DNA of 64,000 nt from Kryptolebias marmoratus (taxonomy: Eukaryota > Chordata > Actinopteri > Cyprinodontiformes > Rivulidae). The position numbers were made by a program, and so were the translations under genes. The notes beneath the pieces were generated by a model. It had not been told where the DNA came from. It was given only the letters and a program-made list of their open reading frames with translations, and made no database searches. How positions within the stretch are numbered: the stretch's first letter is position 1; each line of letters begins with the position of its first letter. Below are positions 30,745 to 33,700 of the stretch, piece by piece. Where the stretch lies: contig NC_051437.1 of assembly GCF_001649575.2 (NCBI RefSeq), positions 21,343,685-21,407,684 on the forward strand. Reading direction: 5' to 3'.

Positions 30745-33700
30745 ATGTCCCAGTCCACTGTTGCAGAAGAAGGAGGCACCTTAGAGCACCTGTGGAGCTC
30801 CCTGTGAGTGTCAGCAGCACCTGCTGAGCACTGCTGCAGTCAGCTTGTTAACATTCATGCTTCTATTCAAATGTGCATGAAACAAACTAGGCAGTAACCA
30901 CAATCAGTGTTTTTTATATTTGTTGTTTTGTATCTTTATGCAAATTTGTTTTTATTTTAATTAAAATAAACATAAAGTGTGAATCATTTTAACAATTAAA
31001 GACCTCGTGCTCGTTGAAAGAATACACACTGCCTTTCATGCCAGAATTAAACTAGGATCATTTTGTGTTGAGATATTATAAAATTCTAGGTGTTCGGTCA
31101 AACCTTGAACTGAGCGTTATGCACAGCCTCATACGCTCAGAGTATGTGCTGTGAATAACTCTCAGCTACTACCACATCAAATTTTAGCTCAATATTTGCA
31201 TAGTCTTTATATATTTTTACACAAAAAAAAAGTCTCATTGTGATACAATCGCACTGCTTTGTGCCATCTGGATAATTTCGTGTTCATGATGTGATCACAG
31301 GGAGCCAGACAGCACCTATTTTGAGCTCCCTCCAAACAGCCAGCGAGGTGATCATCCAGTCCCCTCTACGAGCACACCGGGAAATCACCGAAACTGTGCA
31401 GACGTCTCCATGGACGTCTTTCAGATGAGAGACATGAACGACAATGTAATGGTAGGAACATGAGTGTGTCCTTCATGCTTTGGTTCATATTTCCTTTGGT
31501 TTTAAGAAGCAGAAATTTATTTTATTTAAGTTTTTTTTTTCTTCTCAGCTACAAATCTTTGTTTTTTAAGCACAGGCGCACACACACACACACACACATC
31601 CAAGCATTTATTTTTTTTCTGTAATCTTTTTGCTTTTTTCCCTCCAGTTGTGAAAAGATTCCCTCCTATAGTTTCCCTCTTCTCTCCTGCTTTTTCCCTC
31701 TCTGGTTCTCTGCTGAGCAACCTGTTGGGACTGTGGGATGGTGGTGTGTCTGTGTGTGTGTGTGTTGGGGGAGGGTTCATGAAGTCCCAAGCCGACCCCT
31801 TGCTGCTCCACTGTAGAGCCCATCTGTTGTGTGGCTGCCTGTGTGCTTTAACAAACATGCACATAAGTTTGCAGGTGAATACACAGGTTGCACCTTCTGA
31901 ACTTCAAACTCACAGGACGAATCAGAACTTTTTTTTTTTTTGACACGCGGTCCATCTTGAGCATGCCTCATTTTGCAACTCGTCCATATTTGTCTCTCAA
32001 ATAAGATAACTCCAGCCACACCTCAGTTTTGTGCCCTTCCAATCTTGAATATTGGTCCGATGTCATCTTTAAGTGGGCAAGCCCGGGCCTGCCGGGGCTG
32101 TTAATGAATAGTCATAAAAGAAAAAAGAAAGAGGCGGCGCCAGCATTTGTTGTTAGAAGCAAGGCAAGTAAAGAAGGCCAAGTCAAGCAAGGGAAACAAA
32201 TGCAGGAGACGAGAGGCAGGGCATCGCTCCCATCCTCCATCATGTCCCGCTCCACAGAAAGATCACCTGGCTGCGCAGAACTCAACTGTGACTGTCCCGC
32301 TTTGACCACAGCAAGTCCTGAGTGAGCTGAGGCGCAGAGCGTTGTAGAAACACGTTTTAATTTTCAGGAGCCTTGAGATGCTGTGTGATGTGGTAAGTGG
32401 ACACAGATTAAGATTCTTACAATATCTGTGAGATTGCTCTGTTAGAATGCTTTTTTTCATTTGGTTGCAAGTTTGATAAACAGCTCTCGGCTAGGTTTCT
32501 GTTTTCAAAAGGCTGAAAGAAAAGAATTTGAGTTTGACCCAAGAGTCTGCTGGGGAGGTGCATTCATGTTTGTGACAGCTTGAATTGGAACTTGAGTAGA
32601 AAAAAAAGATCATTTATATGTGTTCTTGTTTAGTAGGAATGCTTTTTAAATTATCAAGTAGTTTCAAGTTAGATGTTTGGATGTTGATGTAAAAGGGATC
32701 TCACTTTTATGGTGTGGCATTTTGCCTTATTTCCTTTTTCTTGAACTTTTTTCATTATTTCTTTAGGAAATCTATGTGACTCTTCTTTAACAACCCTATT
32801 TCTAAAAAAGTTGGGATGTTGCATAAAATAAAAACAGAATGCAATGATTTGTAAATGTCACAGAACCATATTTTTAATTCAATTTGGAACATAGTAATCA
32901 TATCAAATGTTAAAACTGAGAAGCTGTCATTTTTACAACAGCAAAACATTGCAAAAACTTGGGACAGATGCAACAAAACAAACAAGAAACAGCTGAAGGA
33001 GCGTTTTGCAGTAAATTTGGTTCATTGGCAACAGGTCAGTAAGAGAACTGGGCATAAAAAAGACATTTCAGAGAGGCTGAATCTATCAGAAGGTAAGATG
33101 GGCAGAGGTTCAGCAGTCTGCAAGAAACTGCATCTATAAAGAGTGGAACAAATTCAAAATAATATTCCTCAATGGAAGATTGGAAAAACTTTAAATATCC
33201 ATTCATCAGTTCATAATATCATCAAAATATTTTAAAAATACAGAGAAATATCTAAGCATCCAGGACAAGACTGACAGTCAGTGTTGGATGTTGGGATCTT
33301 CGAGCCATCAGGCAACACTGCATTAAAATTGGTTCTGTTATGGACATCACTCTATGAGCTCAGGAACACTTTCACAGTTTGCCATGCCATCTCCAAATGT
33401 TGGTTAAAGCTCTATCGTGCAAAGAAACAGCCTAAACACAATCCAGAAACCCTGCAGTCTGTTACCAGGGTGCAGTTCAAAGGGCTGCCTCTCTCATGGT
33501 ATGGGGGTGCATTGGTGGCTATGGCATGGGCAGCTTACACATCCAGAATTGCACCACAAATGCAGAAAAGTACATACAGGTTTTAGAACAACTGATGCTC
33601 CCATCCAGCAAAATATCTAACAAAGAAGGACTGTTGAACAAATCTTATATCAGACAGGAATAGGACAACATTCCCCTCCAGAATCTCCAGCAACTGGTCT

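What the first reader, a model, noticed from the sequence alone, without database searches (positions are those of the whole stretch)
32075..32392. Candidate fish delta-Np73 (P2) promoter with a conserved p53-family response element and a five-codon start exon
GGGCAAGCCCGGGCCTGCCG at 32075, CATAAAAG 18 bp later and, about 230 bp after the inferred start, ATG-CTG-TGT-GAT-GTG ending on GTAAGTGG in phase 0. The response element agrees at 16 of 20 positions with the autoregulatory element of the human promoter as I recall it, and spacing, orientation and location in the gene also fit. If right, the p53/p73-to-delta-Np73 feedback site is conserved from fish to human, and the fish isoform starts MLCDV, an exon that ORF-based annotation would miss.
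Basis: partly seen in the sequence, partly recalled or inferred. Interest (0 to 1): 0.8.

Follow-up and report, generated by a model that had tools for sequence, protein, structure and literature searches.

The report
Fish p73: promoter-like site, wrong start
This stretch of a fish p73 gene carries a site strikingly like the human switch for the short, inhibitory form of p73, but the short form in this fish most likely starts at a different, conserved exon about nine thousand bases further on.

Summary
The letters are as described. The window holds a teleost tp73 gene, and 32,075-32,392 lies in its intron 3. The 20-mer matches the published human ΔNp73 response element at 16 of 20 positions, including its non-canonical CCTG core. 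A match that good occurs in 10 of 2000 shuffles of intron 3. A TATA-like box follows after 18 bp, and the donor at 32,392 ranks 3rd of 617 GTs in the intron. So a promoter-like cassette is a serious candidate, although the p53 consensus alone is unremarkable (4 sites, 2.81 expected).

The five-codon start exon is probably wrong. None of 240 fetched p73-type proteins contains MLCDV. Of 120 hits, 19 start MYY[VL]KKK joined directly to SQY of exon 4, from tarpon to a goby. This window encodes exactly that at 41,186-41,206 with a phase-0 donor. DNA just upstream is conserved in Seriola.

Reading: ΔNp73 starts MYYVKKK. The 32-kb cassette is at most a distal P2-type promoter with an untranslated leader. 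Its use and its conservation in fishes could not be tested: I reached no other fish DNA and no reads.

The parts
30745..30803 (+). tp73 exon 2 (coding part)
31301..31451 (+). tp73 exon 3
32075..32094 (+). element 16/20 identical to the human ΔNp73 response element
32113..32120 (+). TATA-like CATAAAAG
32144..32392 (+). inferred leader exon of about 249 nt; start placed about 30 nt after the TATA-like box by inference, 3' end at the strong donor
32200..32325 (+). upstream ORF, 41 codons, with a second in-frame ATG at 32242
40809..40892 (+). stretch conserved with the N-terminus of Seriola protein P0016 (82%, E 1.7e-12), with an in-frame stop here
40891..40904 (+). p53-family half-site GGGCATGCCA (9/10) running into CATAAT: possible local promoter of the MYYVKKK exon
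41029..41206 (+). inferred exon carrying the ΔN start if the acceptor at 41029 is used (178 nt)
41186..41206 (+). ΔNp73 start MYYVKKK, phase-0 donor to exon 4
42123..42371 (+). tp73 exon 4 (SQYNLL...)

Best explanation
This is intron 3 of a teleost tp73 gene. The ΔNp73 protein of this fish starts at MYYVKKK, 41,186-41,206, in an exon about 0.9 kb before exon 4, and not at MLCDV. The cassette at 32,075-32,392 is best read as a distal P2-type promoter: p73 (perhaps p53) bound at the human-like element would drive a TATA-directed leader of about 250 nt that ends at the strong donor 32,392 and stays in effect untranslated. Spliced to 41,029, its MLCDV frame reads MLCDVHMCL-stop, a short uORF, and ΔNp73 is then started at 41,186. 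Shown: the sequences, the gene model, the MYYVKKK start in other teleosts, the statistics. Inferred: that the 32-kb cassette is transcribed at all (about 0.4), what it joins, and any binding by p53 or p73. The confidence given is for the core claim only: ΔN starts at MYYVKKK and MLCDV is not the ΔN N-terminus.
For: 19 of 120 p73 hits start MYY[VL]KKK then SQY. Named sources include Megalops (Elopomorpha) and, placed from my own knowledge, Albula, Aldrovandia, Siphateles, Neoarius, Osmerus, Hypomesus, several syngnathids, Champsocephalus, Amphiprion and Knipowitschia. 4 of the 19 (P0029, P0040, P0063, P0101) are encoded on contigs of 3,088, 2,710, 2,233 and 1,810 bases, too short for the introns (exons 4-14 span 13,327 bp here), so they are probably spliced transcripts (inference). 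The exact codons plus donor are in the window (0 mismatches; 0.18 matches expected at up to 2 mismatches). 0 of 240 fetched proteins contain MLCDV or start MLC. Mammalian ΔN starts fetched here are MLYV, MLFV or MQYV, nearer to MYYV than to MLCD. Acceptor-like sites at 40973, 41002 and 41029 rank 1, 7 and 6 of 645 AGs, and the 5 acceptors tested all stop the TA frame, as described for human ΔN'p73 (PMC8227208 passages). Promoter part.
Against: No transcript of this species was seen. Clusters at 90% identity could hide an MLCDV isoform inside a TA cluster (one has 281 members). The MYYVKKK donor is weaker than the MLCDV donor (rank 11 against 3 of 617). MLCDV begins ML, like human MLYVGDP, and is in phase. 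Other AGs outside the MYYVKKK exon score as well (40805, 31648, 32767 and 31549 rank 2-5). The MYYVKKK exon may have its own promoter at 40.8-41.0 kb, leaving the 32-kb cassette without a role. A recalled human exon 3' leader does not align significantly with the 32-kb leader (54 of 500 shuffles reach its score).
Confidence: 0.8

Rival explanations
1. The ΔN promoter lies right at the MYYVKKK exon (about 40.8-41.0 kb), as human P2 lies at exon 3'. The 32-kb cassette is a chance resemblance or an intronic p53-family binding site without a transcript.
For: Block 40,809-40,892 is conserved with Seriola. GGGCATGCCA (9/10 half-site) runs into CATAAT at 40,891-40,904, leaving a leader of about 250 nt before the ATG. 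None of 18 other N-termini maps to 32,075-32,392.
Against: The best full p53-type site in the 500 bp before MYYVKKK has 3 mismatches and a 9-bp spacer, no better than control stretches (best 3, 4 and 3 mismatches), against 2 mismatches before MLCDV. The strong acceptor-like sites at 40805-41029 suggest an internal exon. It leaves the match with the human element (10 of 2000 shuffles) plus TATA plus donor to chance.
Confidence: 0.45
2. One reading: P2 at 32.1 kb, exon ending at 32,392 joined to exon 4, ΔNp73 starting MLCDV.
For: Element, TATA-like box, in-phase ATG and strong donor; begins ML like human MLYVGDP.
Against: 0 of 240 fetched proteins have MLCDV while 19 of 120 have MYY[VL]KKK, which this window encodes. 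Two upstream ATGs precede MLCDV.
Confidence: 0.1
3. The MYYVKKK exon is an internal exon of P1 transcripts only (ΔN'-like): it is spliced from exon 3, stops the TA frame, and ΔN starts at 41,186 without any P2 promoter.
For: Good acceptor scores; the TA frame stops after all 5 acceptors tested; the human ΔN' precedent (PMC8227208 passages).
Against: Does not explain the conserved block 40,809-40,892 or the 32-kb cassette; no junction data.
Confidence: 0.2

Closest known systems
Human TP73 P2 promoter and exon 3' (ΔNp73)
   Same: In intron 3; 20-mer 16/20 identical, including the CCTG core; a TATA-like box downstream in the fish; an in-phase ΔN start between exons 3 and 4
   Different: The human start codes MLYVGDPARHLAT (peptide MLYVGDPARHLATAQ in PMC11612387, passage). 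This fish codes MYYVKKK 9.1 kb from the element; MLCDV beside the element matches neither. Response to p73/p53 in fish untested.
Human ΔN'p73 (P1 transcript with 198 bp of exon 3' that stops the TA frame; PMC8227208 passages)
   Same: The fish exon ending at 41206 also stops the TA frame from each of 5 tested acceptors (lengths 178-402 nt) and carries the ΔN start
   Different: Splicing from exon 3 is not shown here
Teleost ΔNp73 models, e.g. Amphiprion ocellaris isoform X4 (P0008), Osmerus eperlanus X2 (P0044)
   Same: MYYVKKK joined to SQYNLL; the same residues are encoded in the window with a donor
   Different: Their first-exon DNA and promoters were not available to compare

Membership tests
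Vertebrate ΔNp73 P2 promoter | Lies in tp73 intron 3, sense strand | tested here: met
   Exon 3 ends 31451, exon 4 starts 42123
Vertebrate ΔNp73 P2 promoter | Element resembling the human p73 element | tested here: met
   16/20; reached in 10 of 2000 intron shuffles
Vertebrate ΔNp73 P2 promoter | Core promoter with a transcription start | tested here: inconclusive
   CATAAAAG 18 bp downstream; no start-site data
Vertebrate ΔNp73 P2 promoter | Bound and induced by p73/p53 | not testable with these tools
   Needs ChIP or a reporter assay
Vertebrate ΔNp73 P2 promoter | 32,075-32,120 conserved in other fishes | not testable with these tools
   No fish DNA reached: searches gave no locus; the own-genome search did not complete
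Vertebrate ΔNp73 start exon | Open frame with a phase-0 donor to exon 4 | tested here: met
   True of 32392 and also of 41206
Vertebrate ΔNp73 start exon | Codes a ΔN N-terminus seen in relatives | tested here: not met
   MLCDV in 0 of 240 fetched proteins; the start at 41186 meets it
Canonical p53 response element | Two RRRCWWGYYY half-sites | tested here: inconclusive
   First half 10/10, second 8/10 with a CCTG core; 4 such sites in the window vs 2.81 by chance

The most novel reading that the evidence does not exclude
In this fish the ΔNp73 unit is split: a human-like, p73/p53-responsive P2 promoter 0.6 kb behind exon 3 makes an untranslated, uORF-bearing leader that is spliced 8.6 kb on to the conserved MYYVKKK exon, so the autoregulatory site is shared by fish and human although the protein's start exon is not.
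Probability: 0.3. Interest if true: 0.55.

Novelty: new member of a known kind. Interest (0 to 1): 0.4.

Why it matters
If the 32-kb element is active, the p73/p53-to-ΔNp73 negative feedback is older than the fish-human split and can be tested in fish models. Even if it is not, the correction matters: ΔNp73-specific knock-outs, morpholinos or qPCR in fishes should target the MYYVKKK exon about 0.9 kb before exon 4, not a presumed human-like exon at 32.1 kb.

Tried and rejected
Fish DNA to test conservation of 32,075-32,392: the search for related loci with P0008 gave no locus in viral contigs or genome contigs. The own-genome search did not complete.

Annotated N-termini from 32.1-32.4 kb: of the 23 hits classed 'other', 18 were mapped. 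The 5 left out (P0031, P0061, P0062, P0106, P0114) carry TA or exon 2-3 sequence by eye. None of the 18 maps to 32,075-32,392 (best hit touching it E 0.12, minus strand). Some look like read-through of the intron before exon 4; P0016 maps to 40,809-40,892.

Recalled human exon 3' leader against intron 3: not significant at 32 kb (54 of 500 shuffles reach the score) or at 41 kb (395 of 500). Two overlapping windows elsewhere (33,452 and 33,652) tie the top score, which equals the mean best score of shuffled queries. Not used as evidence. My recollection of the human bases between the element and the start site is too unsure to use.

Literature: ten searches. The term MYYVKKK gave 0 papers, 'zebrafish p73' 0, and 'Np73 promoter' with 'TATA box' 0. 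I saw no title on a fish ΔNp73 promoter in the listings, but I read only the papers named here and older subscription papers are not held. The promoter paper PMC133713 is not held.

Rejected: treating the p53-consensus match alone as significant.

One search was a script that failed; one search replaced it.

Full report
What is there. The window carries the tp73 coding exons 2-14 on the + strand. They were placed by tblastn with human p73 (recalled sequence) and trimmed to consistent splice sites; they read as one open TAp73 protein. The closest fetched cluster is P0004, named for Poecilia mexicana (93% over 670 aa). Intron 3 is 31,452-42,122.

Is it more than chance? The human element is printed as -76 GGGCAAGCTGAGGCCTGCCC -57 in a table of PMC6696488 (passage seen). 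The fish 20-mer agrees at 16 of 20, and both have the CCTG core that the table lists as non-canonical. Such a match turns up in 10 of 2000 shuffles of intron 3, 6 of 300 of the window and 0 of 5000 of the local 400 bp. The plain p53 consensus gives no signal (4 sites, 2.81 expected). A [CT]ATAAA box in a given 8-bp span has a chance of about 0.014 in this intron. The donor GTG|GTAAGT ranks 3rd of 617 GTs. A human-P2-like cassette at 32.1 kb is therefore a serious candidate, though the features were chosen after the fact and nothing here shows activity.

The start exon. I searched the first 50 residues of the proposed MLCDV protein (120 hits with E up to 1 among 209 candidates). A script classed 73 of 120 as TA forms, 19 as MYY[VL]KKK directly before SQY, 4 as starting inside exon 4, 1 as MSQY and 23 as other (3 of these, P0031, P0061 and P0062, are TA forms by eye). 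A second search with MYYVKKK (47 hits among 55 candidates) returned only proteins already listed. A third with the human ΔN start (142 hits, best 120 listed) listed mammals wherever a species is named. In the listed 120, 8 have MLYV, and checks on single entries found MLFV twice and MQYV once. No protein of the 240 fetched starts MLC or contains MLCDV. Among the 19 MYY clusters is Megalops, an elopomorph, and the others spread to percomorph fishes (my knowledge). Four of the 19 lie on contigs of 1.8-3.1 kb, too short to hold the introns, hence probably spliced RNA (inference; the tool does not say what its source 'lgn' is).

The window encodes this start. ATGTACTACGTGAAAAAGAAG lies at 41,186-41,206, followed by a GT donor at phase 0. 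Its donor is weaker than that of MLCDV (rank 11 of 617). Upstream are acceptor-like sites at 40,805, 40,973, 41,002 and 41,029, ranks 2, 1, 7 and 6 of 645 AGs; sites at 31,549, 31,648 and 32,767 also rank in the top five. Entering from exon 3 through each of five tested acceptors (40805, 40973, 41002, 41026, 41029) stops the TA frame. This is the logic described for human ΔN'p73, where 198 bp of exon 3' bring a stop and translation starts at the ΔN codon (PMC8227208 passages).

The N-terminus of Seriola protein P0016 matches the translation of 40,809-40,892 at 82% (E 1.7e-12) across an in-frame stop in the window, so this DNA is conserved without a conserved open frame. It is followed by GGGCATGCCA (9/10 of a p53-family half-site) overlapping CATAAT. 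As a full p53-type site the 500 bp before MYYVKKK is no better than control stretches (3 mismatches with a 9-bp spacer; controls 3, 4 and 3). Of 18 other N-termini none maps to 32,075-32,392.

How it probably works. The ΔNp73 protein of this fish starts MYYVKKK. If the 32.1-kb cassette is transcribed, its leader carries two in-frame upstream ATGs (32,200 and 32,242; 41-codon uORF) and then the ATG of MLCDV. Joined to 41,029 the latter reads MLCDVHMCL-stop, so the leader would act as a 5' UTR. Such a split unit keeps the human-like autoregulatory element and changes the start exon. The rival, a promoter right at 40.8-41.0 kb, is about as likely. A recalled human leader aligned no better than chance to either region and decides nothing.

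Compared with what is known. By sequence the element resembles the human ΔNp73 P2 site. Membership as a P2 promoter is unproven, and MLCDV as the ΔN exon fails the one membership test that could be run. Held sources differ on the human site itself: the table in PMC6696488 marks it for p73 and not p53 or p63, while PMC8227208 says that both p53 and TAp73 bind it (passage).

Limits. No fish DNA beyond the window and no reads were reached (own-genome calls unanswered). Protein clusters at 90% identity can hide isoforms. Splice scores rest on matrices recalled from memory. The confidences of the best explanation and its rivals overlap, because the core claim (start at MYYVKKK) is shared by three of the four readings.

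Noticed in passing
36123-39917, minus strand: An intact 1264-aa ORF in tp73 intron 3, antisense to the gene; its first 400 aa match the endonuclease/exonuclease/phosphatase family (Pfam PF03372), so a LINE-type retrotransposon is likely; a second 400-aa piece gave no Pfam match.
   Followed up: partly
40805-40892: Conserved stretch that a Seriola p73 protein model treats as coding and joins to exon 4, but which holds an in-frame stop here; alternative 5' exon or promoter block.
   Followed up: partly
32860-33338: Inverted-repeat arms ACAGAACCATATTT / AAAATTGGTTCTGT (86% complementary, 451 bp apart), possibly a small non-autonomous DNA transposon just after the candidate leader exon.
   Followed up: no
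53310-53460: Exon 12 read through its donor ends in RYFTLQ-stop, like the C-terminus RYLTLQ of P0101: a possible short C-terminal isoform.
   Followed up: no
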